26,628 bases of DNA from a virus, in IMG/VR virus record IMGVR_UViG_3300044574_000117, positions 1 to 26,628 of that record. One strand, given 5' to 3'. Below, piece after piece: positions 2,766 through 25,650 of this stretch (the stretch's first letter is position 1; every line of letters begins with the position of its first letter). The notes beneath the pieces were generated by a model. That model was given only the letters and a program-made list of their open reading frames with translations, did not search any database and was not told the origin of the DNA. The position numbers and the translations under genes were made by a program.

Positions 2766-2869
2766 GGCAAGGAGATGAGCGAGGAGACCAGCCCGTGGCC
2801 GAACTCCTCCAGCTCGTAGCAGTTGAACTGGCCGTCGCAGGCAAAGACGATGTATTTCTTGTGGTTCAT
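2762..2869 (-). CDS. Stand-alone 35-aa copy of the capsule-transferase-like C-terminus
   Basis: A 35-residue frame from ATG 2869 to TGA 2762. Both ends overlap neighbouring genes by 4 nt. About 17 of 31 aligned residues are identical to the last 33 residues of the 272-aa protein at 4361-5179: GQFNCYELEEFGHGLVSSLI here against GQFNCQELKELGYGIVSGLI there, with the preceding Ala-Cys also shared. The DNA is close as well: GCAGTTGAACTGGCCG is common to both on the plus strand. It is therefore either a duplicated, detached terminal module or the remnant of a second full-length gene. The intact start, stop and coupled overlaps argue that it is translated. Confidence 0.6.
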   Translation of the reverse strand: MNHKKYIVFACDGQFNCYELEEFGHGLVSSLISLP

Positions 2870-4095: not shown

Positions 4096-4364
4096 TCCAG
4101 ACTGTAGTGCTTGATGCCAGCCTTCTGGCAGTAGTTCAGGATGGCCTCTTCTTCGGTTCGCCCGCCGCCAATCTCCCTCGGCGAGTATGTAGACCCATCA
4201 GTTTTGATGACATGACAGGTCCAAGGGAACACGTCGTTGCCGAATTCGTCCTCGTCCATTTCTAGGGCTTCGGAAAAGAATTCGGTCACAAGCCCATGCT
4301 TCCGCAGCCAAGCAAGCTTCGGGGAGAGTGATTCAGGAAGGTCGTCGAATAGCATGGCGCTCAT
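4092..4364 (-). CDS. Hypothetical acidic protein (90 aa)
   Basis: A 90-residue protein starting MSAMLFDDLP. The frame extends to 4484, but that part lies inside the capsule-transferase-like gene. The ATG at 4364 overlaps that gene's TGA by 4 nt and is preferred; an ATG three codons later is an alternative. The middle is acidic (EALEMDEDEFGND), followed by a beta-rich piece with CHVIKTDGSTY and the closing GGGRTEEEAILNYCQKAGI. The last part resembles the end of the protein at 2410-2613 in its Gly-x-Gly-x-Thr...Ala-Ile...Ala-Gly-Ile pattern. No function is assigned. Confidence 0.6.
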   Translation of the reverse strand: MSAMLFDDLPESLSPKLAWLRKHGLVTEFFSEALEMDEDEFGNDVFPWTCHVIKTDGSTYSPREIGGGRTEEEAILNYCQKAGIKHYSLE

Positions 4365-5179: not shown

Positions 5180-5181
5180 GA

Positions 5182-5334
5182 TTATTCGGCGGCAGCGACC
5201 AACGCTACAACAGCGCAGACGATGGTGATGCCGAGTACGAAGTTGTAGTTGTTGCGGAAGGCGCATAGCGCCACCACGATTAGGGTGGCGGCAATATACT
5301 TCGCCAACTCTCTTGTGAATATTTCTGGTCTCAT
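5182..5334 (-). CDS. Small membrane protein (50 aa)
   Basis: A 50-residue protein starting MRPEIFTREL. Residues about 13-24 (YIAATLIVVALC) and 33-48 (LGITIVCAVVALVAAA) are hydrophobic, separated by a short polar turn (FRNNYN), suggesting a hairpin of two membrane segments. The stop is 2 nt before the start of the next gene, and the upstream gene's stop is 8 nt away, so it fills the space exactly. Function is unknown. Confidence 0.55.
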   Translation of the reverse strand: MRPEIFTRELAKYIAATLIVVALCAFRNNYNFVLGITIVCAVVALVAAAE

Positions 5335-5342
5335 GGTGATAA

Positions 5343-5957
5343 TCAACCCCAAGTTTCCGCAAAAGCAAGCGCTATTCCGGAATAAGTTTCCGACCTTTTC
5401 TTAGCCCGCTCAGGAGAAGGACCTAGGCGATTTTGTCCTGAGTCGCATTGGTTGGACCAACGCTCCACGATGCGCCCATTCCAAGTTACTAGCCTTCCGG
5501 CAACCCTCTTTGAGTGGTCCAGCGGAAGCGGCGGAAGGTTCTTGAGCCAAAGGCACGTCTTCTTGCTGGCATCGTCCCCAAACTCATAGGGCTGGATATA
5601 CTGGTCTGGCTTGCCAATGATTGTGCTCATGCATCCGACTGGATTCTCAAGGCAAATCTTCTTGATGGGGGCCTCCCAGCAACGCAGGAAGAACACAGCG
5701 GCATAGTGGGTTTCCCGCTCGCGCTCGGGCCTGCGGTGATTCCAATGCAGACCGGATGACGAAAGGTAGGTGCATGGCGGGTGGGCAATCATCATGTCCC
5801 ATTTCCCGTCATGAATGACATCCAGCAGGTCCCCTTGGATATGGAACCGCGAATTGTCGTCCGATGGCTCAAGGTCGCAACTGAACGCCTTGTGTCCACG
5901 CGCCCGGAAGGCACGGCGCACAACGCCGGATAGTTCACACCCAACCAAAATTTTCAT
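5343..5957 (-). CDS. C5-cytosine methyltransferase-like phage protein (204 aa)
   Basis: The N-terminus MKILVGCELSGVVRRAF resembles motif I of C5-cytosine methyltransferases, followed by CDLEPSD (motif II area) and IQGDLLDV (motif III area). IAHPPCTYLSSSG (residues 58-70) carries the Pro-Pro-Cys of catalytic motif IV with Cys62. The usual Glu-Asn-Val of motif VI is instead ENP (104-106, in LENPVG). At 204 residues it is much shorter than classical enzymes (over 300) and no clear target-recognition domain is seen. This compact type with ENP is common in phages; whether it methylates DNA, a nucleotide or something else is not established. Start 5957 overlaps the upstream stop by 4 nt. Confidence 0.65.
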   Translation of the reverse strand: MKILVGCELSGVVRRAFRARGHKAFSCDLEPSDDNSRFHIQGDLLDVIHDGKWDMMIAHPPCTYLSSSGLHWNHRRPERERETHYAAVFFLRCWEAPIKKICLENPVGCMSTIIGKPDQYIQPYEFGDDASKKTCLWLKNLPPLPLDHSKRVAGRLVTWNGRIVERWSNQCDSGQNRLGPSPERAKKRSETYSGIALAFAETWG

Positions 5958-6352
5958 TTGCGCCCCCTTGTCAGTCTGTAGATTTTGTCGATGCACCATT
6001 GAAGGAAGTAGGCCTGCGCCTCGTCCTCGTATACCCCCGTCTTTATCCCTAGGTGGTCGAACAGGTAGTTGGAGAAATGCAGGCATTCATGGGCGATTAC
6101 CCCCGGCTGCGGGACCGGACTCTTGAATGCAACACAATGCAGGTTATTGTGGGCCAAGAATTTACCAGATGACAGAAAGAACTCCTTGTCGCCAAACTTG
6201 CAGCCACGGTCAACGTGGATGAATTCAATCTTGAGCTGGTCAGATGTTGCCCCCCAAATCACATAGCAGCCCTGACCGTAGTTCTCGTTCCAGATGAACG
6301 CCCGGTTTGGCCTGCCATTCCTTCCCGTAATCTTCCATTCCTTAGTCCGCAT
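5954..6352 (-). CDS. HExxH metallopeptidase-like protein (132 aa)
   Basis: A zinc-peptidase-like motif, HECLH, is at residues 88-92 in VIAHECLHFSNYLFDHLG, followed by an acidic DEAQAYFLQW segment whose Glu111 could be the third metal ligand. This arrangement is seen in a conserved group of small phage proteins. The core is preceded by a beta-rich N-terminal part with WNENYGQGCYVIWG. No signal peptide is present, so it would act in the cytoplasm or in assembly. The substrate is unknown. The start at 6352 is preferred over an upstream ATG because it limits overlap with the membrane-protein gene to 11 nt. Confidence 0.65.
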   Translation of the reverse strand: MRTKEWKITGRNGRPNRAFIWNENYGQGCYVIWGATSDQLKIEFIHVDRGCKFGDKEFFLSSGKFLAHNNLHCVAFKSPVPQPGVIAHECLHFSNYLFDHLGIKTGVYEDEAQAYFLQWCIDKIYRLTRGRK

Positions 6353-7014: not shown

Positions 7015-7653
7015 TTATCTTGAGGAAATTCCGGGCTTGGCCCCACGGGCTTCCAACGCCTCTTGTAGCAACGCCAAGTTCCTCCATGTTGAGGCCGTCA
7101 GGTGGTAAAGCTGTTCGTCGCTAGGCGGCTGTCCGCCGGGAACCCAACCGGAGTCGATAAGGTGCCTCATGATGCAATCCGGATGGTCCGACGACTTGCT
7201 GCGAGCCCAAGTCGGCCCCTCGGTGGAACCCGGGTTGTGCTTCTTGTCCGACACGTATGAGTGACGGGCAACCTCAAAGCAAGCGGCGGGAAAATATCCA
7301 AGCAGGCCACGATAGAGCGCCCCTTCCTTGCGGGTCTTGTCATCCTGTGGGATATAGAATCGGCGCTTACCGCCAATCGCCTCTTGGAACTTGTCCAAAA
7401 CATCTGCGTGCGTTGTAACGCGCTCCCCCCACATAGCCTTGTCGTCCCGGCATCCAGCCACCGGAATCTTGCGGTAGAGCCGCATGTCCATCTTTGCCCC
7501 GTATTCATTAGCCTCCTCTGCGCTCTTGAAGGATTCGGCATTGACGAATTCAGCCGGGCTCCCACGGGAAACCCAGATGTCGTTTTGCAGAACCAGCCCA
7601 TGCTCGACGTGCTGGTAGCCGCCGATGTCTTTTGGTAGTGGTTGGTAGCTCAT
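7015..7653 (-). CDS. dATP/dGTP diphosphohydrolase-like (DUF5664-type) protein, 212 aa
   Basis: The C-terminal half matches a phage all-alpha NTP-pyrophosphohydrolase-like family annotated as dATP/dGTP diphosphohydrolase (DUF5664-type). Visible family pieces are GLLGYFPAACFEVARHSY, then HNPGSTEGPTWARSKSSDHP, IMRHLIDSGW and HLTASTWRNLALLQEALEARG. The N-terminal 80 residues are less familiar. Such proteins would cleave dNTPs to dNMP and pyrophosphate and alter the nucleotide pool. The metal-binding acidic residues expected of MazG-type enzymes are only partly visible (Glu in FEVARHSY, Asp in SSDHPD), so activity is inferred. It overlaps the upstream gene by 4 nt and is followed by a 35-nt gap. 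Confidence 0.55.
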   Translation of the reverse strand: MSYQPLPKDIGGYQHVEHGLVLQNDIWVSRGSPAEFVNAESFKSAEEANEYGAKMDMRLYRKIPVAGCRDDKAMWGERVTTHADVLDKFQEAIGGKRRFYIPQDDKTRKEGALYRGLLGYFPAACFEVARHSYVSDKKHNPGSTEGPTWARSKSSDHPDCIMRHLIDSGWVPGGQPPSDEQLYHLTASTWRNLALLQEALEARGAKPGISSR

Positions 7654-10681: not shown

Positions 10682-11107
10682 ATGGCTAAGAACAAAGCAA
10701 AACCCAAGAGGGATATTGAACTGAAGGGCGTCGCCGGGACGATGCAGGACCTCATTGGCAGCTCGGTTGACATCAAGATGCCAGATGGTGGTATTGTCAT
10801 CGTTCCGTCCGAACGTTCGGGGAACCGCGTGGCCAACATGATTTTGGCTGCGCAAATTCGCCATCTTATCCAAGAATCCATCAAGAGCTACAAGGACAAG
10901 GATATGCTGGCAACCCCCAAGGACCTGAAGGACTTGGCTGAAGCAGCGAAGTCGCTGCATCAATTTTCAGGGGAGGTCTACAAGGAGGACGAGCCCATGC
11001 CCAACGCCCCGAAGAAAATCAGGGAGCCATCCAAGGCCGATGATGATATCTCGTTTGACTCTGCCATCGAGACTCCTCCGATTGAGCCGGAGAAGCCCAA
11101 GGCATGA
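10682..11107 (+). CDS. Hypothetical protein upstream of TerL, possible small terminase
   Basis: A 141-residue protein with a basic start (MAKNKAKPKRDIELKG), a central predicted helical part (NRVANMILAAQIRHLIQESI, then LKDLAEAAKSLHQF) and an acidic Pro-rich tail. It overlaps the terminase start by 4 nt (ATGA). Small terminase subunits are often found here and have a similar size and helical content, but no DNA-binding motif is recognised, so this is only a positional guess. Confidence 0.5.
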   Translation: MAKNKAKPKRDIELKGVAGTMQDLIGSSVDIKMPDGGIVIVPSERSGNRVANMILAAQIRHLIQESIKSYKDKDMLATPKDLKDLAEAAKSLHQFSGEVYKEDEPMPNAPKKIREPSKADDDISFDSAIETPPIEPEKPKA

Positions 11108-13053
11108 ACATAGTAGAACTCAAGGTTATTCATCATTTCGCCGCATCCGAGCAATGGGCTGAGGCAGCCAATGAGGCCTTGCGGTTGATTGGCAGGCAGC
11201 CGATTGCCAAAAGCAAAAGGGACTCACTTCCCATTCTGAGGAAGCTGTTTCAATCGTTGCTGGATAAGGATATGTACTTGCATGCCGCGACCCTGCAATG
11301 GGGTGGCGACATGTTCAATGCCGAGCCCGAGTCAGTGGCACGCACGTTCAACGCAATCTCGGGGAATTCCAAGGTGCTGCTGATGGGTGCGTCATCCATG
11401 GGCAAGTCGTACAACGCTGGCGTTTACCTTGCGCTGGACTACCTGCGTGACCCGCTCTACACCACCGTAAAGCTTGCCGCCGTCAACGAAGACCATCTGA
11501 AGAAGAATCTGTTTGCGCACGTGGCCAAGCTGTTCCGCAATCTTGCCATCCCGTCAGAACACGACATCATTGTGCGTGATTCCGACCTATGGATTGGCAT
11601 CAAGGAAGCCGGGTACGAATTCGGCATTTCGGGTATTGCGTTCAAGCAGTCGCAAGAGAAGGGCGGCCAGTTCAAGGGATACAAGTCATTACCCGTCAGA
11701 CCAAAGCCACACCCGAAGTTCGGCATGATGTCACGCCTGCGCGTGCTGCTGGACGAGGGGCAGGACGCTCCCGGTGGTCCGTTTCAGGACTTCAACTCCC
11801 TCTATGCCTCAATTTCCAACGAGGGGCTGGTGAAGGTAATAGTGGCGTTCAATCCCGTCTCCGTTGACCGCATCGTTGTCCAGATGGCCGAGCCCGAGGA
11901 AGGCTGGCATGTTGACCAAATCGACACGCTCTACGATTGGGAATCCAAGGCTGGATGGACTGTATGCCGACTGGATGCAGTCATTTGCGAGAACGTCAAG
12001 CAGAAGAAGCTGGTCTACGAGGGGCTACAAACCTACCAAGGCTTCATCGGCTACCTGAAGTCGGGCGGCGACAATTCACCGAGCTATAGCTGCTTTGCCC
12101 GTGGATTCCCCCCAATGAAGGGTTCCACCAACAACATCATCCCGCCGATGTGGCCGCAGGAGGCTCGCGGGGAAGCCACCTTCATCCAAACACCAATCAA
12201 TGTAGCCGCCATCGACTTGGCCTTCATGGGCTCCGATTCCGCCCAAATGGCCGTTGGTCGATGGGGATTGGCGTCGGGATACAAGCCGCAGAACCAGATT
12301 ATTGGAGCCAGTGGAGTTCCGACAACATTTGTTCCGTTTCATGACCGTGGCAACATGAAGGAAAGCCGTCCGCGCCATGTCCTTCAGATAGACCAACTGA
12401 TATCGCTGGCCAAGCATGACGACACCATTCGCATGGCCCAAGAAATTATCTCCCGCTGCAATCAGCTTGGCGTAAAGCCCGAGAATTGCGGGGTTGACAT
12501 GACTGGCATCGGTCAGGGCACCTATGACCACCTCAAGGGGGTGTGGGGCGACTGCATTGGTATTTCGTGGAGCCATGGAGCAACTGATATGAAAATTCTG
12601 GCCGAGGATACCGACCCGGCCAGCAAGCAGTGCGACGGCATCATGTCCGAGATGTGGTGGGCTTTCCGGAGATGGATTGACCCGACGGTCAAGGCCATCC
12701 TGATAAATCCCATTATCCCTCCGCAGCCCATTCACACGCAGATGACTTCACGGCAGTTCACCACCGGCAAGAACGGAATCAAGGTGGAGTCCAAGGAGTC
12801 GTTCCGCGCCCGCAACCAGAAGTCTCCGGACGAGGCAGATGCCGTCATCCAGCTTTGCCACGTGGTTCGTCGAATTACCGACACTCTTCCGGGCATGATT
12901 GAGCGGCCCAAGAACCAGAACAGCCGCCCGGGTCCGGATGCCCCTGTGTTCACAACTCCGGCCAAGCAGCAGCCCACAGAGGACCATGACTCAATCTGCG
13001 GGGACCCCGAAAATGAGGAGGATAATCTATATGAGGCATCGCTTGAAAACTAA
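11104..13053 (+). CDS. terL: Terminase large subunit
   Basis: A 649-residue packaging motor with ATPase and nuclease parts. The Walker A-like loop is GASSMGKS (residues 95-102), and the Walker B is VLLDEGQD with Asp217-Glu218. A coupling-type segment VIVAFNP follows at about 245-251. The nuclease residues are Asp371 (AAIDLAF), Asp465 (CGVDMTG) and the Asp576/Asp579 pair in SPDEADAVIQL, the usual RNase-H-fold arrangement. It would translocate DNA into the prohead and cut the concatemer. The Pro-rich tail after residue 595 is probably disordered. It begins inside the previous gene (4-nt overlap) and its 3' end overlaps the next gene by 23 nt. Confidence 0.92.
   Translation: MNIVELKVIHHFAASEQWAEAANEALRLIGRQPIAKSKRDSLPILRKLFQSLLDKDMYLHAATLQWGGDMFNAEPESVARTFNAISGNSKVLLMGASSMGKSYNAGVYLALDYLRDPLYTTVKLAAVNEDHLKKNLFAHVAKLFRNLAIPSEHDIIVRDSDLWIGIKEAGYEFGISGIAFKQSQEKGGQFKGYKSLPVRPKPHPKFGMMSRLRVLLDEGQDAPGGPFQDFNSLYASISNEGLVKVIVAFNPVSVDRIVVQMAEPEEGWHVDQIDTLYDWESKAGWTVCRLDAVICENVKQKKLVYEGLQTYQGFIGYLKSGGDNSPSYSCFARGFPPMKGSTNNIIPPMWPQEARGEATFIQTPINVAAIDLAFMGSDSAQMAVGRWGLASGYKPQNQIIGASGVPTTFVPFHDRGNMKESRPRHVLQIDQLISLAKHDDTIRMAQEIISRCNQLGVKPENCGVDMTGIGQGTYDHLKGVWGDCIGISWSHGATDMKILAEDTDPASKQCDGIMSEMWWAFRRWIDPTVKAILINPIIPPQPIHTQMTSRQFTTGKNGIKVESKESFRARNQKSPDEADAVIQLCHVVRRITDTLPGMIERPKNQNSRPGPDAPVFTTPAKQQPTEDHDSICGDPENEEDNLYEASLEN
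13017..13022 (+). promoter_or_regulatory. Strong Shine-Dalgarno sequence inside the end of terL
   Basis: AGGAGG lies 8 nt before the ATG at 13031. It is the clearest Shine-Dalgarno site seen in the window, and it decides between two in-frame starts (13013 and 13031). It stands out because most other starts here have none. Confidence 0.65.
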
Positions 13054-15625: not shown

Positions 15626-17749
15626 ATGGAAGATTCAGCCTATTCTTCGCAGAACCAAGTCCTACCGGACGCCGTAGGTTCTTCTCCCGAATTGTCGAAA
15701 TCGACACTGGAGCCCACCAACCGAACGGTCAACAGCGTCAACCAAGCGTTCTCGGTGTGCGAGACGATGGTTTCCGACTGGAAGAAGGGCATTTTGTTTG
15801 CCGCGCGCATCACCGCCAAGATTAACGGAGAGAAGCCGTACAACCAAAAGAAACTCAAGGACGCCGGCAAGGACTACAAGACCAACGTTTCAACCGGATT
15901 CTTGGCTACCGAGTGCGCGAGGGTTGTTCCTCGCCTGTTCATGCCCATCAAGACAGCCAAATACCTGACGGCTGCGTGTTTGCCGAACAACTGGCCCAAT
16001 GCCTTGGAAAAGACCGAGTTCTTCCGCCAGACCGTAACTGAAACGATTCGTAGCTGGCCAAAGTTCAATTTCTATATTCGCGGCCTCGCCAGAGAGGTTG
16101 GCATCTATGGATTCGCGTCGAATGCATTCTTCGACAAGTACGACTGGAGGCCAAACCTGATGCGGGTGGACAAGGGCTTTGTGCCTCAGGGCACCGAAAT
16201 CATGGACGAGCCCCAGTTCTTCATGGCCAAATATGACTACAGCCCGAATGAACTTTTGGACCTGCTCAAGACCTCCATCGACTCTGGCCGGTCTGAATGG
16301 ATGAAGGAAAACGTGGTGAACGCCATTCAGGATGCGCTTCCGCCGCCGGTTGATGCGACTTATCCAAATGCTCGCGTGTACGAGGAGCTTATTCGTCAGG
16401 CGTCATGGTCCTACACCTACACGAAGGGTGCACGCAAGATTTCCACTTATCAACTTTTTGCGAAGGAAGCCACCGGCAAGGTAAGCCATTACATCCTGCT
16501 GGCTGGCGACCAGCCGATTGTCACCAAAGACAGCAAGCCAGATGGCAAGAAGGACTCTCGCCTGCTTTACGAATTTCTGGACAAATACCCGTCAATGGGT
16601 GATGCGGCCAACACCATGGTATTCGACTTTGGTGATGGCACCATCCACGGCTCTTGGGGCACTGGCCAGATTCTGTACGACCTAGCGGTTCATGTGGAGA
16701 AGATTCGTTGCGACGGCATGGATAACATGCGCATGAGCAACAAGATGAAGCTCACCGTGGCCGATGGCAAGAACGTCAACGACGTTAAGCTGTCCATCAA
16801 CGACCAATGGATGCTGGTGTCTAGCGCCCAGTTCTCAGGCAATACAGCCGGTCTCACAACCGACATGGAGGGATATGAGTTGCTGGACCAGAAGCTGTCC
16901 CAACTTGCCCAGCAGAAGATTGGCGCGTTTGTTCCACCCATCCCGCTTCAGCCATCCGATGTCAAGGCCGCTCAGGTCAATGCCGCCATGGCAAAGGAAC
17001 GCGAGCTTCAGGAGGCCCTGCTGGAGAATTGGCTTATCCAGTTTGCCGTTCTGGTCCGCGCTATGACGCGCCGCCTCTCAGACAACGAGAGCCCGGATGC
17101 CGTGGCCAAGAAGTTCCAAGAAAAGCTACTCACGCGCCTAACCCGCGAGGAGATAAACATGCTGGCCACCGAGTTCCCGATTCAGTCTGTCATGGACTTC
17201 ACTGAATATCGCGCCCAGCAGAAGGCCGCTTTCTGCGCTTCCATCGCCAAAGACCCGCGTTTCCGTCAGGACATCGCCGCCCGCCACATGGCCGGTGGGG
17301 TCGGGGATGCAAGGTTTGTTGATGAAATCATCGTCCCGGAGGGTGATAACTCAATGCAACTTGCAGCTCAACGCCAACAGCAGCTTGAAAACGCCGCCAT
17401 GGTCATTGGTCAGGACGTTCCAATCCTGCCTCAGGACATGGATTGGGTCCACATGACCACGCTAAAGCCCAGCCTGTCCCAGACCATCCAGTCCGGGAAT
17501 GCCCAGCTTGCCGAAATCGGCCTGCGTCACTATGCCGCGCATTATGCGCAAGCTGTTGACAAGAAGGAGATTCCGCCCGAGCAAATCAACCCGGAAAAGT
17601 CTTGGATTGCCGCCGCAGAAAAGACCATTGCCGCGCTGGCCGAGCAGGCGCAAATCCAGCAAGCCACCAAACAGGCCCAAGAGCAGTCGGCAAAGCAGGC
17701 CCAAGAAATCGTTGGTCAGGAGCAGAATCAGCTTGCGCCGGCGCAATAA
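15626..17749 (+). CDS. Portal protein (head-to-tail connector), about 707 aa
   Basis: A large protein located after terL and before a scaffold candidate, the usual place for a portal. The size fits podovirus-type portals (about 700 residues). A region of aromatic/helical segments follows the first 150 residues (WPKFNFYIRGLAREVGIYGF). A central part contains IRCDGMDNMRMSNKMKLTV, in line with the long helices and wing of portals. The last 60 residues form a Gln/Ala-rich coil (AALAEQAQIQQATKQAQEQS), as in portal barrel or crown tails. No strict motif proves the call; context, length and tail composition are the evidence. Confidence 0.7.
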   Translation: MEDSAYSSQNQVLPDAVGSSPELSKSTLEPTNRTVNSVNQAFSVCETMVSDWKKGILFAARITAKINGEKPYNQKKLKDAGKDYKTNVSTGFLATECARVVPRLFMPIKTAKYLTAACLPNNWPNALEKTEFFRQTVTETIRSWPKFNFYIRGLAREVGIYGFASNAFFDKYDWRPNLMRVDKGFVPQGTEIMDEPQFFMAKYDYSPNELLDLLKTSIDSGRSEWMKENVVNAIQDALPPPVDATYPNARVYEELIRQASWSYTYTKGARKISTYQLFAKEATGKVSHYILLAGDQPIVTKDSKPDGKKDSRLLYEFLDKYPSMGDAANTMVFDFGDGTIHGSWGTGQILYDLAVHVEKIRCDGMDNMRMSNKMKLTVADGKNVNDVKLSINDQWMLVSSAQFSGNTAGLTTDMEGYELLDQKLSQLAQQKIGAFVPPIPLQPSDVKAAQVNAAMAKERELQEALLENWLIQFAVLVRAMTRRLSDNESPDAVAKKFQEKLLTRLTREEINMLATEFPIQSVMDFTEYRAQQKAAFCASIAKDPRFRQDIAARHMAGGVGDARFVDEIIVPEGDNSMQLAAQRQQQLENAAMVIGQDVPILPQDMDWVHMTTLKPSLSQTIQSGNAQLAEIGLRHYAAHYAQAVDKKEIPPEQINPEKSWIAAAEKTIAALAEQAQIQQATKQAQEQSAKQAQEIVGQEQNQLAPAQ

Positions 17750-17766: not shown

Positions 17767-18012
17767 ATGCCTGAACTTACCGAAATTAAAAAGGTTACCG
17801 TCCTAGCGTTGAGGCGGTTCCTTCTCTCCGAGCCCGGGATTGAGGTCCAGCTTGTTCTTCGCGAACAATGTCCATCCATCCCCGGCAATGGAGACGCCCA
17901 TAACATCATCTTTGCCGCTGGACGAGCCGAGGGTTGGAAGCTTTGCATTGCCGCAATGCACAACCTTATCGCCGTAGAGAGGGTCAAGACTGAAAACCTA
18001 GAGAACGCTTAA
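17767..18012 (+). CDS. Hypothetical protein (81 aa)
   Basis: An 81-residue soluble protein starting MPELTEIKKV, located between the portal and scaffold candidates. It appears alpha/beta with a short motif HNIIFAAGRAEGWKLCIAAM in the middle and an acidic end (VKTENLENA). It has one Cys pair without a metal pattern. In several podoviruses a small head protein lies here, but no family is recognised. Confidence 0.55.
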   Translation: MPELTEIKKVTVLALRRFLLSEPGIEVQLVLREQCPSIPGNGDAHNIIFAAGRAEGWKLCIAAMHNLIAVERVKTENLENA

Positions 18013-18024
18013 TACAATACGAAT

Positions 18025-19500
18025 ATGCACGACGAAATCAAGCCAACAGATGTTGAGGTCTCCAAAGACCCCTCAGGTCCCGTAATTACGACCAAGAACG
18101 AATCCACGGAGGTTCTCGATGCCAACGGTCGTCCCCTTGGCGGCGAAACGCCGTTGAGCAAAATCTTCGATAAGATTGCGGATGGCACTGACGCCAAAAC
18201 CGCCGTAAAGGAGGTAATGCGCAAGCCGGTTGTCGTGGTTGACGAGCAGGCTCAAAAAGAGACCAAGCCCCCCACGGTTGAGGACGAGGGCAATAAGCGC
18301 CCGCTGTTCGATGAACAGAAGGAAGATGTTGTGGTTGAAAAGAAGGTCGAGGCGAAGGCCCCCGAGCCCAAGGTTGAGGCCAAGCCCGAAGATGAAGTTT
18401 CGGAGTCTGACCTTCAGGTTCTCCCGCACGACAAGCCGAAGACCGCCCAGCGCATTTCCGCTCTTCTAAAGAAGTCTTCTTTGGCCCAAGAAATGGCCGA
18501 GAACACCAAGAAAGAGCTGGAGATTAAGGCCAATCGCCTTTCCGAGCTGGAAGAGGAGCTGAACAAGGTCAAGTCGGTTGACCCTCTTACAGACGAAAAG
18601 GTCAAGGGCCATCTTGAAGAACTTGCCATGTATCGTCGCCGCTACGACTTGGAGAATAGCGATGATGTCAAGCAGAAGTTTGATGGTCGTGTTACCGGGG
18701 CAGAAGAGGCCATTCAAAGCACCCTCGCCAGTCGCGGGGCACCAGAGTCCCTTATTGCCGAAATCAAGGCCGAGGGCGGGTGGCTGAAGTTCATAGACAG
18801 CAATCGCGTGATTTCCCTCGCCAGCGGCAAGGAAATGCCAGCCTCTGAGCTAGCCGAGGCCATCAAGCAGAACCTCCCCCATTCCGAGCGCCGCAAGATT
18901 GAGGCCCTTGAACTGGAGCAGGTTCAAGCCCAGCGAGACAAGCAGACGTATTTCCAAGAGGAAACAAAGAAAGCCAAGGATTATTTTGCCACCAAGGAGA
19001 ACCAGACACGCGAACAGGCTTTGGCGCAGAAGAAGCAGTTCGATGATGCCGTTAAGGTCGTTGCCGAGTGGCGCACAAAATTCCGAGAAGAGAACCAATG
19101 GCTTAAGGAGCAGGAGGTTCCGGCCAACGCGACAGCCGAACAGAAGGCGGCGCTTGAGGACCACAACACGCACGCTAAGCAGCTTAATTCCTTGATGGAA
19201 AGGCACCTACAGGCCAAGGACATCAACCAGATGCTTGAGGTTCTGGTGGACTCCATCAAGTACCATCAGGAGCGCCGAAACCTTGCCAAGGCCTTGGCTG
19301 ATAACAAGAAGCTGCAAGACTCACTGAAGGCAAAACAGGACGAGTTAGACAAGTTCAAGAAAGCCGGTTCGTCTGTCAGAAGCTCCGGCAGCCTGTTCTC
19401 CAGCGGAACCCGATCCGAGTCTTCAACAGAAAAGAAGGCCCCGCCCAGCCTTGAGGACGCTTTTGCCGCCCTTGAGCAGGGTAAATCTCTCGATTCCTAA
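18025..19500 (+). CDS. Scaffold protein candidate (491 aa, acidic coiled coil)
   Basis: A long, highly charged protein with almost no Cys. The first 130 residues are Pro/Glu/Lys/Val-rich and look disordered (EAKAPEPKVEAKPEDEVSES). Several coiled-coil-like stretches follow, for example LEIKANRLSELEEELNKV, and further ones around residues 290-330 and 400-450. It ends with a Ser-rich segment and SLEDAFAALEQGKSLDS, a helical tail like the capsid-binding end of scaffolds. Position after the portal supports scaffold. Unusually, five other genes separate it from the capsid gene. An alternative is an internal virion protein. Confidence 0.6.
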   Translation: MHDEIKPTDVEVSKDPSGPVITTKNESTEVLDANGRPLGGETPLSKIFDKIADGTDAKTAVKEVMRKPVVVVDEQAQKETKPPTVEDEGNKRPLFDEQKEDVVVEKKVEAKAPEPKVEAKPEDEVSESDLQVLPHDKPKTAQRISALLKKSSLAQEMAENTKKELEIKANRLSELEEELNKVKSVDPLTDEKVKGHLEELAMYRRRYDLENSDDVKQKFDGRVTGAEEAIQSTLASRGAPESLIAEIKAEGGWLKFIDSNRVISLASGKEMPASELAEAIKQNLPHSERRKIEALELEQVQAQRDKQTYFQEETKKAKDYFATKENQTREQALAQKKQFDDAVKVVAEWRTKFREENQWLKEQEVPANATAEQKAALEDHNTHAKQLNSLMERHLQAKDINQMLEVLVDSIKYHQERRNLAKALADNKKLQDSLKAKQDELDKFKKAGSSVRSSGSLFSSGTRSESSTEKKAPPSLEDAFAALEQGKSLDS

Positions 19501-20318
19501 TGTCGCACGAACCGCTTCCAATCGACGCAGAGGCCCAGAGCCTCTCGTCGGAAGCCACGATTACCATGTGGCAGGGCCGAAAGGTCTTCTTGATGCATCC
19601 GGTTTATCGGTCTTTTAATGCCAAGACCCACTTCACGATGTTCGCGTGCTACAAGGACTATGGGCCGGAAAGAATCGGCATCATAGAACCGGTTGAAGGA
19701 ACCGTCATTCACGAGGCCCGCAATATCCTTGTGGACCGGGCCATGAACAATCTTGAAGCCGAGACGTTCATCATGATTGATGACGACATGGTTCTTCCGT
19801 GTGGCAGCGAGGCCTATTTTAATGGCAGGCTTCGGGCCGGTGTTAGCCCGGAATCGGCGCGGTTCAATGCCATATCACGCATCATGAGCCATGGCCGCGA
19901 CAAGGAAATCGTATCTGCGCTTTATTTCGGCAGGCACGAGTTTGGTCTGGCACAATGCGAGTGGGGTTTTAATTCCGAGAACAGGCAGCATAATATAGAC
20001 TTCCGCTCTGGCCGTCATCGCGGGCTAATTCCAATGCCGTGGGTTGCGACGGGATTCATGAAGATTGAACGTACAGCCATCGAAAAGCTCAAGAAGGCCA
20101 TTGACGAGGGGGAGTTCCCGGAGTGCAAACCAAAGCCGGGACAGGGGTGGTATGGATATTTCGCGCCGGTATCAACCGGCATTGGCGAAGATGTTAGTTT
20201 CGGCTTGCGAATGCAGAAGATTGGTGTTCAGTCATACCTAGACGCTTCGCTGGTTTGCCTTCATGCCGACGGCAACACGATGTACGGGCCACGTAATACG
20301 CGCAATCCAGACAAATAA
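19500..20318 (+). CDS. GT-A-type glycosyltransferase-like protein (272 aa)
   Basis: The start overlaps the scaffold stop by 1 nt (TAATG). A hydrophobic strand followed by an acidic triad, FIMIDDDMVLP (residues 90-100, Asp94-96), resembles the metal and nucleotide-sugar site of GT-A enzymes. Downstream, the segment PMPWVATGFMKIERTAIEKL and GIGEDVSFGLRMQKIG (228-242) match the acceptor-side and second acidic region (Gly229-Glu230-Asp231) of such enzymes. It should transfer a sugar from a nucleotide-sugar donor; the acceptor is unknown. It is the first gene of the sugar block. Confidence 0.7.
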   Translation: MSHEPLPIDAEAQSLSSEATITMWQGRKVFLMHPVYRSFNAKTHFTMFACYKDYGPERIGIIEPVEGTVIHEARNILVDRAMNNLEAETFIMIDDDMVLPCGSEAYFNGRLRAGVSPESARFNAISRIMSHGRDKEIVSALYFGRHEFGLAQCEWGFNSENRQHNIDFRSGRHRGLIPMPWVATGFMKIERTAIEKLKKAIDEGEFPECKPKPGQGWYGYFAPVSTGIGEDVSFGLRMQKIGVQSYLDASLVCLHADGNTMYGPRNTRNPDK

Positions 20319-20319
20319 T

Positions 20320-20988
20320 ATGAGTATTCGAGAAATCAAGCCAAGGAAAAATCGGTTCGGAACCATCATTTCCTATTTCGTGGACGGAGTGAACACTCCT
20401 GACGATGCAGCCAACCTTGGGTCTATTGGTGCATTTTCTGCATTTGTTGCCATTCATACTCTAGGAAATCCGCCTCAGCCAAACGTTGACGGCGTGACAT
20501 ACATTACCCATCGGGTTGGCCCAAGGCTCAAAAGCGCCATTGGTCACTACATATCCCAGATTCGTGGTGAACAGCTCATTGCGTTCGTCAATCCATCAAC
20601 CAGACTGATTGAGGACGCCACCAGAATCTATCAGTATGCCGACTCCTACCGAATGGAACGAGCATTCGGGTTCTTTGCCGGAAACCCCGAGAATCCCACT
20701 GTTGTTGGGTTTTCAGCCGCCATCATGCCGCACCTGTTTCATGCCGTTCCAGAACAGATGGATGTCGGCGGAGAATGGCTTAAGTGGATGCACAAGTGGG
20801 CACCAAGAGCCATGATGCCCCATAGATACTTCGATGCCAATGGACTCATTGCCGTTGCGGACGTTGAGGTCAAGCCAGCCGAGTCATATGAGATTGTGTC
20901 AGAACCTATCGTTGTGCCCGAAAAGGCACAGGAGTCGGTTCTGGTTGAGAAAAGGAAGGCTGGACGCCCAAAGAAAAAGGCGAAATAA
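20320..20988 (+). CDS. Hypothetical protein (222 aa) with AT-hook-like C-terminus, in sugar block
   Basis: The ATG at 20320 is preferred; the frame upstream overlaps the previous gene. The middle of the protein (LIAFVNPSTRLIEDATRIYQ, then RAFGFFAGNPENPTVVGFSA) is alpha/beta, with a Trp-rich stretch (GEWLKWMHKWAPRAMM) followed by HRYFDANGLIAV. The last residues form a short basic Lys-Arg-Lys-Ala-Gly-Arg-Pro-Lys-Lys-Lys tail like an AT-hook, which could bind DNA or an acidic surface. No family is recognised, but the protein lies among glycosyltransferase genes and its stop overlaps the next start by 1 nt. Confidence 0.55.
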   Translation: MSIREIKPRKNRFGTIISYFVDGVNTPDDAANLGSIGAFSAFVAIHTLGNPPQPNVDGVTYITHRVGPRLKSAIGHYISQIRGEQLIAFVNPSTRLIEDATRIYQYADSYRMERAFGFFAGNPENPTVVGFSAAIMPHLFHAVPEQMDVGGEWLKWMHKWAPRAMMPHRYFDANGLIAVADVEVKPAESYEIVSEPIVVPEKAQESVLVEKRKAGRPKKKAK

Positions 20989-21746
20989 TGCTACTACTTA
21001 ACATCCAGTTCTGGTCTGGAGACAGGAAGCAGGCCATGGAGCTTGCCCGCTTCATGGCCGACCTTGAGCCGGCCATGCGCCATGACGCATGCGTGCTGTT
21101 CTCTGCTAGGTTCGATTGCAAGCACGACGAGGACACGATGAAGTATGTGGCCCAGAAATTCAGGGTATTCAAGTTTACCGGAAAGCGAAAGCATACAGGA
21201 TGGCCCGCCGGCCCAAACCAGCTCATGGGAGAGTCGTATGAGTTTGTCATTGAGGCGCTTAGGTTCAAAAAGCTCCCGCCAGAAGTCGATGCGGTGATGT
21301 TCATTGAGGCCGACTGTGTTCCGCTGTCCAAGGACTGGATTACCAAGTTGTACGCAGAGTACAGGTCCTCCGGGAGGTTGGTGGGCGGTGCTTGGCTCAA
21401 GAAGGACGATGCCGGAATAGAGCATATAAATGGCAACTGCATCATCTCCACTAGGTTCTGGGAGCATTGTCCGCAAATATTCTGGCCACCCAATCAAGGC
21501 GGCTGGGACGCCCTTTTGGCGGGAAGCATCCTTCCGCACGCCTATCCGTCGCGCTTTATCTGGTCGGACTATCAGCTCGGTCAGGAGCATAACCCTTGGC
21601 GCGGATGCGATTACCTATGGGCCGCAAAGCGCTATGGAGCCAAGGATAACGTCTTTTATGGTCAGGACCTATACCCGGTATGGTTTCATGGAATCAAGGT
21701 CGCCAGTGGCCTTAAATGCGCAAGGGCGAGGCTTCTGAACAAATAA
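20988..21746 (+). CDS. GT-A-type glycosyltransferase-like protein (252 aa)
   Basis: The N-terminus LLLNIQFWSGDRKQAMELAR and later VMFIEADCVPLSKDW (residues 103-117, with Glu107-Ala-Asp109) have the strand-plus-acidic motif of GT-A enzymes. Further on, IEHINGNCIISTRFWEHC and GGWDALLAGS fit the acceptor half of such proteins, and VWFHGIKV near the end could supply a conserved His. It overlaps the previous stop by 1 nt. Donor and acceptor are unknown. Confidence 0.68.
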   Translation: MLLLNIQFWSGDRKQAMELARFMADLEPAMRHDACVLFSARFDCKHDEDTMKYVAQKFRVFKFTGKRKHTGWPAGPNQLMGESYEFVIEALRFKKLPPEVDAVMFIEADCVPLSKDWITKLYAEYRSSGRLVGGAWLKKDDAGIEHINGNCIISTRFWEHCPQIFWPPNQGGWDALLAGSILPHAYPSRFIWSDYQLGQEHNPWRGCDYLWAAKRYGAKDNVFYGQDLYPVWFHGIKVASGLKCARARLLNK

Positions 21747-21750
21747 CCCA

Positions 21751-22437
21751 ATGCCCAACATCAAGATTCTTCCTAACGGGGTAATGGTCGTTGCCGACGA
21801 CACCCATATCTCGAAGTGGGTCGAGCAGGCCAACGACATCGAGATAGCAAGGGCCTTCATATCCCAATTTTCGAGCCACATCCGGCCCGGTTCGACCGTC
21901 ATTGACATCGGGGCCTGTATTGGCGACCACACCGCAACCTACTCAAATCTCGTTGGCCCAACCGGAAGGGTTGTGGCACTTGAATGCGGCGGTGACTCGT
22001 TTGCCTGTTTGGCCCACAACATGGAGCGTCACCCAAATGTTGTGGCCCTCAAGCTGGCTGTTGGCTCGGCCACCGGCAGGGGTGATTTCATCAGAAGCCC
22101 TAACATTGGGGCGTCACACCTTCACGCAAGCAAGAGCGGTTCCGTTCAGATTGTGTCACTCGACGCCTTGGTCAAGTTGCTTGAACTCAAGCCAGGCTTC
22201 ATCAAGATTGATGCCGAGGGCTGGGAGCACATGATTCTGTGCGGAGCGTCAGCAACCCTAGCGGCATTTAAGCCGCATATGGTTCTGGAAATCAATCATG
22301 GTGCGCTACTTAGGTCTGGGTCCAGCCGTCAAGCGGTGTTCCAAAAACTGGACGAATTGGGCTATGCTTGGTCCATCATTGGGCGCGATGGCATCAACGA
22401 CCCGCAGTACGACATCCTTGCCTATCCCAAGACTTGA
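21751..22437 (+). CDS. FkbM family methyltransferase
   Basis: A 228-residue SAM-dependent O-methyltransferase. Motif I is STVIDIGACIGDHTATYS (48-65), the acidic residue of motif II is in VVALECGGDSF, and the family-typical strand FIKIDAEGWEH lies at 150-160. MVLEINH follows. FkbM enzymes methylate hydroxyl groups on sugars or polyketides, which suits a neighbour of glycosyltransferases. It starts 5 nt after the previous stop, and its TGA overlaps the TTG start of the next gene. Confidence 0.85.
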   Translation: MPNIKILPNGVMVVADDTHISKWVEQANDIEIARAFISQFSSHIRPGSTVIDIGACIGDHTATYSNLVGPTGRVVALECGGDSFACLAHNMERHPNVVALKLAVGSATGRGDFIRSPNIGASHLHASKSGSVQIVSLDALVKLLELKPGFIKIDAEGWEHMILCGASATLAAFKPHMVLEINHGALLRSGSSRQAVFQKLDELGYAWSIIGRDGINDPQYDILAYPKT

Positions 22438-23156
22438 AGACATCAATTTTCATCAGGACGTACCCCAAGGACTTTCCGTGGCTCATTCCATGCCTTCGCT
22501 CTATCGAGAAGTATTGCACCGGATTCCACGAGATAGTTGTCCACGTTGACCCGGAGCACGTCAATTCATTGGGCTCTGGGGTGCCAAGCAACGTGCGCAT
22601 CGTAACGTCCCCTGTCATGCACCACAATGGGTACATCAACCAGCAGATTGCGAAGGTTCTCGCGTGGCAATGGTGCACCGGGGACATAATCTGCTTTCAC
22701 GACTCGGATTGCCTGTTTAATCGGCCAAACACCCCGGACGACCTGATGCGGGAAGGAAGACCGATGATGATTATCACTCCATATGGTCTTGTGGGAGACG
22801 CAATTATGTGGAAGGCCCCAACAGAGGCATGCCTACAATCTCGCGTTGAGTACGAGTTCATGCGTAGATTTCCCCTAACATACCACAAGTCAACACTTTG
22901 CGACTTCGGAAAGTGGTTTGAGCAGACCGGTCGGGGCAAGATTGAGAACCATATTGCCCGTCAATCCATTTTCTCTGAGTTCAACGCCATTGGGGCATAC
23001 GCTTTCGCCTATGAGCGCGGGAAGTATACTTGGGTGAATTCTGTCACCGACCCGTTGCCCACACCCCACGTTCGCCAGTTTTGGAGCCACGGTGGAATAG
23101 CGTCCAATCTTCCAGAGATAAACGCTATTTTGAATAAAAGCGCAGAAAGTGCTTGA
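22434..23156 (+). CDS. Glycosyltransferase-like protein (DUF6492-type), TTG start
   Basis: The first in-frame ATG upstream lies inside the FkbM gene. The TTG at 22434 overlaps that gene's stop (TTGA), and the protein then begins with the family-like segment KTSIFIRTYPKDFPWLIPCL. The central ICFHDSDCLF (residues 86-95) contains Asp90-Ser-Asp92, the DxD metal motif. MMIITPYGLVGDAIMWKAP and the end VRQFWSHGG resemble DUF6492-type glycosyltransferases. It would complete a set of three transferases. Translational coupling to the methyltransferase is likely. Confidence 0.7.
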   Translation: MKTSIFIRTYPKDFPWLIPCLRSIEKYCTGFHEIVVHVDPEHVNSLGSGVPSNVRIVTSPVMHHNGYINQQIAKVLAWQWCTGDIICFHDSDCLFNRPNTPDDLMREGRPMMIITPYGLVGDAIMWKAPTEACLQSRVEYEFMRRFPLTYHKSTLCDFGKWFEQTGRGKIENHIARQSIFSEFNAIGAYAFAYERGKYTWVNSVTDPLPTPHVRQFWSHGGIASNLPEINAILNKSAESA

Positions 23157-23372: not shown

Positions 23373-24605
23373 ATGCCTCTTCCTGCTGAATGCACACTCA
23401 CTCCCAGCGACTACTCTTCGGGTATCGCTTCTCAGGTCTCGATTCTTCGAGCCGAAGCCGTGCGATACATCGCACTTAACGACCCCTACGCCAACGTTGT
23501 CGAGGGCGGAACCACACCCAATCACATGGGTGAGACTATTCGCACCTTGGTTACGAATCGCCAGGTCACAAACCAGAGCCTTACCAACCCTACTTTCAAT
23601 CCCACGATTGATGCTTGCGGTACTGTTGGCGCCAAGTCCGAGTTTGGCCAGACTGTGTTTACCACACAGCTTGAGACCCTTCGTGGTCAGGGTCCCACTA
23701 TCTGCTTGAATCAGTCCCGCTACGCGGTGCTTGATTCCTATCGGATTGCTGAGCAGAACCTCAAGGACGCCATCAAGGCCCTCAATTCGGCGGACATCCG
23801 TTCCCAGCTCCTGATTAACTCGGGCGTGAAGGCGGTGCTCTACTCCAATGCGACGAACCTTGGTCAAATCCTCTCGGGTGGCTATAATCAGGTTGCCGTG
23901 AACTTCCTTGGCGGTCTCCCGACCTCCTCGGTCAGTCACAAGTTCCTGGTTGCCCTGAGCAACTACATGCGCGACAACCTGTCCCCGGAATACTTCGGTG
24001 ACGGTGCCGGTCAGTTTGTAGTGTTCATCAGCTCCTCGGACCAGACCGAAGTCCTCCGCAACGAGGCCGGTATCAAGCAGGAACTGCTCGCGTTTGTCAC
24101 GGGTAACGACAAGGGTGTGGGTGATGCGCTCAAGCGCTACGCCTTCATCGACTATCCATACCGTGGCATTAAGCTGGCCATTGACCAACAGCCCCTTCGC
24201 TTCGATGTGGTTGACGGCAACGGCTTTCCGGTGCTCATTGAGCCCCTCGTTCGCACGGTGACCGACTACGGTGTCGAGAATGCCACTAATGCGTCTTGGG
24301 TCAACGCGCTGTATGAGGTCGGTTTCCTTGTCTCCAAGGGCACCTTCCGTCGGCTCGTTCCGGAGCGGTTTGTTGGCGAAGGTTCCTTCAAGTTCGACCC
24401 GCAGTTTGTCATGGGCGAGCTTGGTTGGCACTATGTCGAGGACAACACCTGTAACGTTTGGGGTGACTTCGGGTTCCACAAGTATCAGTTCGTCCGGGCC
24501 TTCCAGCCGCGTCGTCCGCATGCTGTGATTCCCGTGCTCTACAAGCGTTGCGCGGTTGACCTTGGTCTCGGTGCCTGCACCGGCATCACCAGCCTGACGC
24601 TCTAA
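23373..24605 (+). CDS. Major capsid protein candidate (410 aa)
   Basis: A 410-residue protein with long runs of beta and mixed segments and no enzymatic motif. It follows a long structured leader, uses strongly biased, mainly C- or T-ended optimal codons (many GGT, CTC, TTC, GTC), and is followed immediately by a strong intrinsic terminator. All are marks of a highly expressed virion gene. N-terminal pieces such as ALNDPYANVVEGGTTP and later QLETLRGQGPTICLNQSRYA are in line with capsid-type proteins. Gene order and expression signs are the evidence; no HK97 signature is visible by eye. Confidence 0.7.
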   Translation: MPLPAECTLTPSDYSSGIASQVSILRAEAVRYIALNDPYANVVEGGTTPNHMGETIRTLVTNRQVTNQSLTNPTFNPTIDACGTVGAKSEFGQTVFTTQLETLRGQGPTICLNQSRYAVLDSYRIAEQNLKDAIKALNSADIRSQLLINSGVKAVLYSNATNLGQILSGGYNQVAVNFLGGLPTSSVSHKFLVALSNYMRDNLSPEYFGDGAGQFVVFISSSDQTEVLRNEAGIKQELLAFVTGNDKGVGDALKRYAFIDYPYRGIKLAIDQQPLRFDVVDGNGFPVLIEPLVRTVTDYGVENATNASWVNALYEVGFLVSKGTFRRLVPERFVGEGSFKFDPQFVMGELGWHYVEDNTCNVWGDFGFHKYQFVRAFQPRRPHAVIPVLYKRCAVDLGLGACTGITSLTL

Positions 24606-24723: not shown

Positions 24724-25650
24724 ATGGCCCTTGACCTCTACACGAACAACGAAAGGGAGTTCATTTACGAGGCCTGCGATAGGCTTTGCGTACTAGCTGG
24801 TACAGAAAGGCCGGTCAGCTCCGACCCAATATGGATGGTCGAGAAGAAGGGCCTTCAGGCTGTTGTTGCTTTTAGTCCGTCTTCTGGAAGCGTGACCTCG
24901 GTTGGCCTTGCCGCACCGAGCATGTTCTCAGTGTCTGGTTCGCCCGTGACAGGAAGCGGTACGCTTACTCTGACTTTGGCGAGCCAAGCACCCCATGCCG
25001 TTTTGATTGGCCCAACATCTGGGCCTAATGCGCAGCCAACGTTTCGCAGCCTTGTTGCATCTGACCTGCCGTCGCTGCCATACCTATCATCCACCTTGGG
25101 TTCCGCCCACCTGTTTGTGGGGAATGCCGGCAATGTGGCAACGGATGTGGCGGCTTCTGGCGATGTGACGCTGGCAAACACCGGGGCGTTTACAGTTAGA
25201 GGCATCAACGGAACCCTGCTCTCCGGACTTAGTACCGGACTCTTAAAGAATACAACCGCAACAGGAATTCCGTCCATAGCGGTTCCAGCGGTGGATTACG
25301 TGGCTCCATCCGCCTATGCCTCTGCCAACGGCTTGACGATGAATACCGCCCGCCTGCTCGGGCGTACCACGGCCCTGAGCGGTGATGCCGAGGAGATTTC
25401 GGTTGGGTCCGGCCTTACCCTGAGCGCAGGGACGCTGATGGGAACGGGTGGCACGGTAACGGCGGTATCCATTGCAACCGCCAACGGGTTTGCTGGTTCA
25501 TCTTCCGGTGGTGCGACCCCAATTCTGACTATCACCACAACCATTACCGGCATGTTGAAGGGGGACGGAACCTCCATTTCTGCTGCCATTTCCGGAACCG
25601 ATTATCTCACCCCGGCCCAAGTCCTGTCCCGCGTTTTCTGCAACTGCTAA
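24724..25650 (+). CDS. Tail fibre-like structural protein (308 aa)
   Basis: The first 50 residues are a charged, unique domain (YTNNEREFIYEACDRLCVLA) that may attach to the virion. The rest is Gly/Ser/Thr/Ala-rich with the repeat style of phage fibres: GSVTSVGLAAPSMFSVSGSP, TFRSLVASDLPSL, and later GTVTAVSIATANGF. These repeats form stacked beta structures in fibre shafts. It ends with CNC. It probably forms a fibre or decoration. It starts after an A-poor TATA-containing leader with no Shine-Dalgarno. Confidence 0.7.
   Translation: MALDLYTNNEREFIYEACDRLCVLAGTERPVSSDPIWMVEKKGLQAVVAFSPSSGSVTSVGLAAPSMFSVSGSPVTGSGTLTLTLASQAPHAVLIGPTSGPNAQPTFRSLVASDLPSLPYLSSTLGSAHLFVGNAGNVATDVAASGDVTLANTGAFTVRGINGTLLSGLSTGLLKNTTATGIPSIAVPAVDYVAPSAYASANGLTMNTARLLGRTTALSGDAEEISVGSGLTLSAGTLMGTGGTVTAVSIATANGFAGSSSGGATPILTITTTITGMLKGDGTSISAAISGTDYLTPAQVLSRVFCNC

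What the first reader, a model, noticed from the sequence alone, without database searches (positions are those of the whole stretch)
19500..23156. Sugar-modification block inserted between scaffold candidate and capsid gene
Three GT-A-like glycosyltransferases, a FkbM methyltransferase and an unknown protein with an AT-hook-like tail form a coupled block (1-nt TAATG overlaps, one TTGA overlap) between the scaffold candidate and the major capsid gene. Scaffold and capsid are usually adjacent. Phage-encoded glycosyltransferases acting on virion proteins have been reported in some phages, so a late gene set that builds and methylates a glycan on capsid or fibre is a fair inference. Acting on host surface polysaccharide or on DNA is the alternative.
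Basis: partly seen in the sequence, partly recalled or inferred. Interest (0 to 1): 0.72.

Follow-up and report, generated by a model that had tools for sequence, protein, structure and literature searches.

The report
Conserved glycosyltransferase pair in phage head operon
A large group of phages known only from environmental DNA carries sugar-attaching enzymes wedged between two head-building genes, where they probably decorate the virus particle with sugars; the window adds a third enzyme and a methyl-capping enzyme to this set.

Summary
The block is real: GT1, an unknown protein, GT2, an FkbM methyltransferase and GT3, tightly spaced between a scaffold-like gene and the putative major capsid gene (MCP). 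The window is a whole 26.6 kb viral record. Structure models put GT1 and GT2 confidently in the GT-A fold with conserved catalytic residues. The 'insertion' reading is wrong. In an MCP-anchored scan of uncultured virus contigs, 34 of 35 distinct capsid clusters have GT1 directly after the scaffold gene, and 30 have GT2 directly before the MCP. GT1 is inherited with portal, scaffold and MCP (r 0.90-0.95). Only the material between them (unknown, GT3, FkbM) is variable. The MCP, GT1 and TerL queries tried found no close match among 50,697 annotated phage records. Best reading: late glycosylation, and here methylation, of a virion protein, as in mycobacteriophage Corndog. Candidate substrates are collagen-like or Ser/Thr-rich fibres encoded just after the MCP (50 of 57 loci versus 6 of 76 N4-like controls), or the MCP itself. 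Unexpected: many relatives' GT1 carries an N-terminal helix-turn-helix, others an AT-hook; unexplained. DNA glycosylation is disfavoured (no Tet/JBP in 16 relatives, thymidylate-synthase family in 2). No glycan has been shown.

The parts
11104..13053 (+). large terminase candidate (TerL), start of the structural module
   Evidence: Conserved upstream of portal in relatives; Walker A-like GASSMGKS; no Pfam or PHROG family above threshold; label is by order and size
15626..17749 (+). portal candidate (707 aa)
   Evidence: Conserved in 71 of the first 88 loci; 50-63% identity in nearest relatives; no PDB match by profile; label by order and size, as in N4
17767..18012 (+). small conserved protein between portal and scaffold (N4 gp58 position)
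   Evidence: Conserved in 59 loci
18025..19500 (+). scaffold candidate (491 aa, charged, coiled-coil-like)
   Evidence: Conserved in 76 of the first 88 loci; position of N4 gp57
19500..20318 (+). GT1, GT-A glycosyltransferase, core gene of the head module
   Evidence: Homologue model (L005, 45% identical) pLDDT 93.5, Z 17.9 to human LH3 and STIV A197; D94-D95-D96, E230-D231, H255 invariant or nearly so in 37 members; dN/dS about 0.05 against L009; window copy lacks the N-terminal HTH of its nearest relatives
20320..20988 (+). unknown protein with AT-hook-like C-terminal tail (GRPKKK)
   Evidence: Family of 10 distinct members in the same position; no detectable relation to GT1, GT2 or GT3 profiles; no PDB hit
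20988..21746 (+). GT2, GT-A glycosyltransferase, second core gene, directly before MCP in most relatives
   Evidence: Window protein model pLDDT 97.3; Z 14.9 to C1GalT1, 14.3 to B3GalT6 and xylosyltransferase 1, 12.7 to PBCV-1 capsid glycosyltransferase 2p73; E107-x-D109 and H234 conserved
21751..22437 (+). FkbM-family methyltransferase (variable cargo)
   Evidence: TIGR01444 88.1 bits (cut-off 37.7); PF05050 3.5e-14; also in L002, L020 (as part of one 464-aa ORF that also matches GT3) and several of L023-L054
22434..23156 (+). GT3, probable GT-A glycosyltransferase related to DUF6492 (variable cargo)
   Evidence: DUF6492 and Glycos_transf_2 sub-threshold, relative L002 above DUF6492 cut-off; D92, E182 invariant in 18 members
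23373..24605 (+). major capsid protein candidate (410 aa); possible substrate
   Evidence: Highly conserved (69-80% to nearest relatives); 383 viral contig stretches encode relatives; no PHROG, Pfam or PDB match; label by order, size and conservation
24724..25650 (+). Ser/Thr-rich (25%) fibre-like ORF just after MCP; candidate substrate
   Evidence: Composition; repeat-region similarity to ORFs of L034, L113, L127, L158
25663..26628 (+). second Ser/Thr-rich (27%) fibre-like ORF, open at the end of the record; candidate substrate
   Evidence: Composition

Best explanation
The block is a late virion-glycosylation module. GT1 and GT2 are metal-dependent GT-A enzymes that use host nucleotide sugars to build a short O-glycan on a virion protein made in the same operon. 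The most likely substrate is the Ser/Thr-rich or collagen-like fibre encoded directly after the MCP; the second is the MCP itself. In the window GT3 adds a further sugar and the FkbM enzyme O-methylates the glycan. Shown: fold of GT1 (through a homologue) and GT2, conserved catalytic residues, FkbM membership, near-universal placement between scaffold and MCP, co-inheritance of GT1 with head genes, frequent Thr-rich fibre genes downstream. Inferred: catalysis, donor, acceptor, order of steps, benefit (particle shielding, stability or surface sugar display).
For: 34 of 35 MCP clusters (95% identity) with scaffold and MCP on one locus have GT1 first after the scaffold; 31 have GT2, 30 of them last before the MCP. 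GT1 distances track scaffold (r 0.951), portal (0.945) and MCP (0.898) as tightly as head genes track each other (portal-MCP 0.921; 47 loci, 0 of 999 permutations). Closest folds of GT1: human LH3 (collagen glycosyltransferase) Z 17.9, STIV A197 17.9, Mimivirus R699 17.2, Mnn9 15.9, COLGALT1 15.6; R699 is a biochemically shown viral collagen glucosyltransferase (PMC9546862). GT2 matches many protein- or glycoprotein-acting GTs and the PBCV-1 capsid GT. Collagen-like Gly-X-Y runs of 8 or more triplets, often Thr in Y, within 9 kb after the MCP in 31 of 57 loci and Ser/Thr-rich ORFs in 19 more; N4-like controls 0 of 76 and 6 of 76. No strong membrane helix in the five proteins (maximum 19-residue hydropathy 1.36). 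Precedent: Corndog encodes an O-methyltransferase, two GTs and a GlcNAc-transferase between portal and protease, proposed to modify the capsid (PMC4351075); virion glycosylation by phage GTs later reported (Freeman 2023, cited in PMC12363180; not read directly).
Against: No glycan, host or virion has been seen. Shared GT-A fold does not fix the acceptor: teichoic-acid GTs (TarP Z 13.2) and polysaccharide synthases also match. Many relatives' GT1 bears an HTH or AT-hook, not expected for a virion-protein GT. The window itself has no Gly-X-Y run; its nearest relatives have Ser/Thr-rich rather than Thr-collagen ORFs. The N4-like control has a different layout. L003/L004 show the same head genes without the GTs, so the GTs are not indispensable.
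Confidence: 0.62

Rival explanations
1. The enzymes act on a host surface glycan (lipopolysaccharide, capsule or teichoic acid) to block superinfection or readsorption.
For: Many phage GTs do this; pelagimyophage GTs were read so (PMC7029224). TarP and RmlT (teichoic-acid GTs) match GT1 at Z about 13.
Against: Position fixed between scaffold and MCP across a diverse lineage; GT1 co-inherits with head genes, whereas surface-modifying genes usually vary with the host; no membrane anchor by hydropathy and no flippase recognised in the block.
Confidence: 0.17
2. The enzymes glycosylate phage DNA bases; the HTH or AT-hook parts bring them to DNA.
For: Confident N-terminal HTH in many GT1 relatives (pLDDT about 97; Pfam HTH families in several members); AT-hooks in 6 GT1 rows and 5 of 10 unknown-family members.
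Against: No Tet/JBP oxygenase in 16 relatives' records and thymidylate-synthase-family genes in only 2 of 16, so the hydroxylated base acceptor of known DNA GTs is missing in most; HTH lost in the window clade and absent from many others; structural neighbours are mostly protein or glycan GTs. Several records are fragments, so absence is not proof.
Confidence: 0.12
3. GT1 (and perhaps GT2) works as an assembly factor or structural protein of the procapsid, its GT-A fold being secondary.
For: Immediate coupling to the scaffold gene and deep co-inheritance; variable N-terminal binding modules.
Against: Catalytic DDD, ED and His invariant in GT1 and E-x-D/His in GT2, which a purely structural role would not require; L003/L004 carry the same head genes without it.
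Confidence: 0.06

Closest known systems
Mycobacteriophage Corndog (cluster O) gp35-gp38 virion-modification block
   Same: O-methyltransferase plus glycosyltransferases inside the head operon (between portal and protease), expressed in infection and proposed to modify capsid subunits (PMC4351075); virion glycosylation later reported (cited in PMC12363180)
   Different: Different slot (portal/protease versus scaffold/MCP), different phage type; homology between the enzymes was not tested here; here GT1 and GT2 are near-universal in a large lineage and GT1 often carries a DNA-binding-type module
Mimivirus R699 and human LH3/COLGALT1 collagen glycosyltransferases
   Same: Same GT-A fold, GT1 Z 15.6-17.9; collagen-like proteins are encoded near the enzymes in many relatives
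   Different: No sequence-level match in PDB by profile; no hydroxylase domain; acceptor would be Thr/Ser rather than hydroxylysine; window itself lacks a Gly-X-Y run
STIV A197 (archaeal virus GT-A protein)
   Same: Stand-alone viral GT-A, Z 17.9, 2.2 A over 170 residues with GT1
   Different: Unrelated virus group and gene context; function of A197 not established here
PBCV-1 capsid glycosyltransferase (2p73)
   Same: Viral GT-A enzyme for major capsid glycan; Z 12.7 with GT2
   Different: Eukaryotic algal virus; ranks among many ties, not the top match
N4-like phages (Schitoviridae) head module
   Same: Order portal, small gene, scaffold-like gene, MCP; similar protein sizes
   Different: No GT1, GT2, GT3 or FkbM profile match in 140 N4-like loci; none of this lineage's MCP, portal, scaffold or TerL profiles hit them

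Membership tests
GT-A glycosyltransferases (GT1) | GT-A Rossmann-like fold | tested here: met
   AlphaFold2 model of the L005 homologue, pLDDT 93.5; Z 17.9, 2.6 A over 187 residues to LH3
GT-A glycosyltransferases (GT1) | DXD metal site, catalytic acid/base, C-terminal His | tested here: met
   D94/D96, E230-D231, H255 in 100% of 37 members
GT-A glycosyltransferases (GT2) | GT-A fold and DXD-like motif | tested here: met
   Window protein pLDDT 97.3, Z 14.9 to C1GalT1; E107-x-D109 in 96-100% of 24 members
GT-A glycosyltransferases (GT3) | GT-A fold and DXD motif | tested here: inconclusive
GT-A glycosyltransferases (unknown protein 20320-20988) | relation to the block's GT families | tested here: inconclusive
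FkbM methyltransferases | match to curated model over cut-off | tested here: met
   TIGR01444 88.1 bits over cut-off 37.7
Collagen glycosyltransferases (LH3/COLGALT/R699) | sequence-level homology and activity on collagen-type acceptor | tested here: inconclusive
   No PDB profile hit by sequence; fold match only; activity not testable
Virion-glycosylation blocks of the Corndog type | GTs plus methyltransferase within the head operon | tested here: met
   Corndog layout from PMC4351075
Virion-glycosylation blocks of the Corndog type | glycan found on a virion protein | not testable with these tools
   Needs virions and mass spectrometry
DNA-glycosylating systems (T4-like, Tet/JBP-linked) | enzyme that makes a hydroxymethylated or oxidised base | tested here: inconclusive
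   Tet_JBP 0 of 16 records, thymidylate-synthase family 2 of 16; records may be fragments and the window is partial
Gtr-type serotype conversion | membrane-anchored GT with flippase | tested here: not met
   No strongly hydrophobic 19-residue stretch in the five proteins; no GtrA-like gene recognised in the block
Schitoviridae | N4-type MCP, portal and TerL | tested here: not met
   No hit of this lineage's profiles in 140 N4-like loci; MCP profile-profile E 0.05, probability 1%; gene order alone is alike

The most novel reading that the evidence does not exclude
GT1 is a DNA-tethered glycosyltransferase (HTH or AT-hook module on a GT-A domain) that works at the packaging or assembly site, glycosylating DNA by an acceptor chemistry not yet described or DNA-bound virion proteins, as a fixed step of head morphogenesis in a whole uncultured phage lineage.
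Probability: 0.1. Interest if true: 0.88.

Novelty: new variant of a known kind. Interest (0 to 1): 0.6.

Why it matters
If right, glycosylation would be a standing part of head gene sets in a diverse phage lineage (383 contig stretches encode MCP relatives) rather than an occasional add-on. It would link collagen-like or Ser/Thr-rich fibres to dedicated glycosyltransferases in phages, as in giant viruses. The GT1-GT2 pair with its optional cargo makes a testable system: an MCP-proximal substrate, two fixed enzymes, and natural variants with or without GT3 and FkbM. The HTH-GT fusion is an open puzzle that can be tested directly.

Tried and rejected
tblastn of the window's TerL and GT1 and of two relatives' MCPs against 50,697 phage records: no match. 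GT1 relatives in cultured phages are distant (24-30%), and in the two contexts inspected, HTVC023P and MW202825, no head gene of this kind was annotated next to them. Profile search of MCP, portal, GT1 and the unknown family in PDB: nothing significant. N4-like kinship of the MCP: not significant, although the order matches. Base-modification enzymes: Tet/JBP none, thymidylate-synthase family 2 of 16. Acceptor residues on the MCP from the single GT-less lineage: Y123 (F), T168 (S), N306 (S) differ, but one lineage is no statistical test. Unknown protein as a fourth GT: no support. Host: one MAG contig in a Candidatus Peribacteraceae bin carries scaffold, GT1, GT2 and MCP; binning alone is weak evidence. 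One scan failed for lack of conserved columns. Freeman 2023 is not held.
Full report
The five genes are there and are tightly packed. GT1 starts on the scaffold stop (TAATG), GT2 on the stop of the unknown protein (TAATG), and GT3 on the FkbM stop (TTGA, with a TTG start that matches the start of relatives). The other two junctions are gaps of 1 and 4 nt, so the coupling is slightly looser than written. The window is a complete viral record of 26,628 bases, not a piece of a host.

Identity of the parts. FkbM is above curated cut-offs in two libraries. GT1 has weak PHROG glycosyltransferase matches and Anp1 matches in 13 of 37 members. GT2 has no GT match in Pfam. A GT1 relative (L005) folds at pLDDT 93.5 as a four-helix N-terminal module plus a GT-A domain; the best solved matches are human LH3, STIV A197 and Mimivirus R699, Z 17-18, then Mnn9 and COLGALT1. 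The window's own GT2 folds at pLDDT 97.3 as GT-A, best Z 14.9 to C1GalT1, with many ties including the PBCV-1 capsid GT. Catalytic residues are invariant or nearly so. GT3 stays probable. The unknown protein stays unknown: no relation to GT1, GT2 or GT3 profiles.

Not an insertion. Seven close MCP relatives and 80 GT1 relatives already showed the same order. To avoid picking loci by the block itself I scanned with the MCP alignment (383 relatives, best 80 kept). Of 35 capsid clusters with both scaffold and MCP on the locus, 34 have GT1 first after the scaffold, 31 have GT2 and 30 of these have it last before the MCP. The one exception, L003/L004, carries a beta-helix-like ORF there, and no GT1 was found in those two records (both are partial). 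FkbM, GT3 and the unknown family are patchy and change order (GT3 comes after FkbM in the window, before GT2 elsewhere); in L020 one 464-aa ORF matches both FkbM and GT3, which suggests joint action. Limits: the 80 kept loci are those nearest to the query, and they are phylogenetically clustered.

Inheritance. Across 47 loci GT1 distances correlate with scaffold (0.951), portal (0.945) and MCP (0.898), no permutation of 999 reaching these; GT2 somewhat less (0.78-0.87). Between the window and L009, GT1 is the most constrained gene compared (dN/dS about 0.05, with saturated dS). This is core-gene behaviour.

What it acts on. Host surface: weakened by fixed position, co-inheritance and lack of membrane segments. 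DNA: no Tet/JBP in 16 relatives and thymidylate-synthase family in 2 of 16. Virion protein: favoured. While checking for substrates I found that 31 of 57 loci with at least 4 kb after the MCP encode Gly-X-Y proteins, often with Thr in Y, and 19 others a Ser/Thr-rich ORF. In 76 N4-like loci, which share the gene order without GTs, the counts are 0 and 6. Thr in Y is typical of bacterial collagen-like proteins, and BclA is a known glycosylated one (PMC8968730). In the window the two ORFs after the MCP are Ser/Thr-rich (25-27%) without Gly-X-Y, so the collagen link is lineage-wide, not shown for the window. The control has a different genome layout and collagen-like fibres occur in other environmental phages, so this is an association only.

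DNA-binding modules. An HTH (17 rows by motif, plus L017 and L020 by eye) lies at the N-terminus of GT1 in two of three deep branches; the third has long disordered tails, some with AT-hooks. The window and L009 sit inside an HTH clade (support 98) and have lost it. The unknown protein has an AT-hook-like tail in 5 of 10 members against 2% of ORFs. A virion-protein GT does not need this. It may tether the enzyme to the packaging complex or serve as a protein-binding helical module; it may also mean a DNA target that the enzyme searches missed. I leave it as the main unexplained observation.

Known and new. Phage-encoded virion glycosylation from a block in the head operon is known from mycobacteriophages: Corndog has an O-methyltransferase and three GT-type genes between portal and protease (PMC4351075), and capsid and tail-tube glycosylation is cited to Freeman 2023 in PMC12363180. 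New here are the near-universal two-enzyme core between scaffold and MCP in a lineage with no close match among annotated phages for the queries tried, its variable GT3/FkbM cargo, the HTH or AT-hook GT1 forms, and the frequent collagen-like or Ser/Thr-rich neighbours.

Caveat on labels. MCP, portal, scaffold and TerL are named by order, size and conservation. No library gave a family match, and the MCP fold was not predicted.

Noticed in passing
L005:6458-6625, L006:6254-6430, L123, L136, L150 and others (GT1 N-termini): Helix-turn-helix module fused to a GT-A glycosyltransferase, predicted with high confidence in L005; other GT1s carry long basic tails with AT-hooks and a conserved 'SxNPF' or 'SFDPF' motif near the N-terminus.
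   Followed up: partly
window:13741-15582: TOPRIM plus DnaB-type primase-helicase gene sits between terminase and portal inside the structural operon, a pattern of the window's closest relatives only.
   Followed up: partly
L010, L012 (helicase ORFs of about 970-1007 aa versus 613), L010, L014, L044 (TerL ORFs of 777-1014 aa versus 649): Much longer helicase and terminase ORFs than in the window; in L006/L010 the helicase match resumes after a long gap, which suggests inteins.
   Followed up: no
L002 after GT1; L003:7324-7884; L004:8951-9511: Beta-helix-like protein (PF13229-type) in the scaffold-MCP slot; in L003/L004 it lies where the GT block is in relatives.
   Followed up: partly
window:23157-23372: A 216-nt non-coding gap before the MCP; many relatives have about 110-260 nt there, suggesting a conserved promoter or leader.
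   Followed up: no
window:8690-9197: Three tRNA genes (Met-CAT, Thr-TGT, Gly-TCC) between the leftward early genes and the rightward late genes.
   Followed up: no
window:1213-1536, 2083-2406, 2869-3423, 7018-7653 (minus strand): Left arm has cpYpsA SLOG, DUF7768, a class I methyltransferase and a dATP/dGTP diphosphohydrolase-like gene; 4364-5368 and 5346-6086 have no Pfam match.
   Followed up: partly
L052, L057, L063, L119, L122, L128, L159 upstream of TerL: One or two GT3-like genes directly upstream of the terminase, so GT3 relatives also occur at the other end of the structural operon.
   Followed up: no
L182 (JABFSS010000103.1, MAG of Candidatus Peribacteraceae): Contig binned with a CPR bacterium carries scaffold, GT1, GT2 and MCP of this lineage; a weak host lead.
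   Followed up: partly
G013:12155-22741 (relative behind L072): A 3,528-aa ORF of the size of N4 virion RNA polymerase in one sub-lineage; identity not tested.
   Followed up: no
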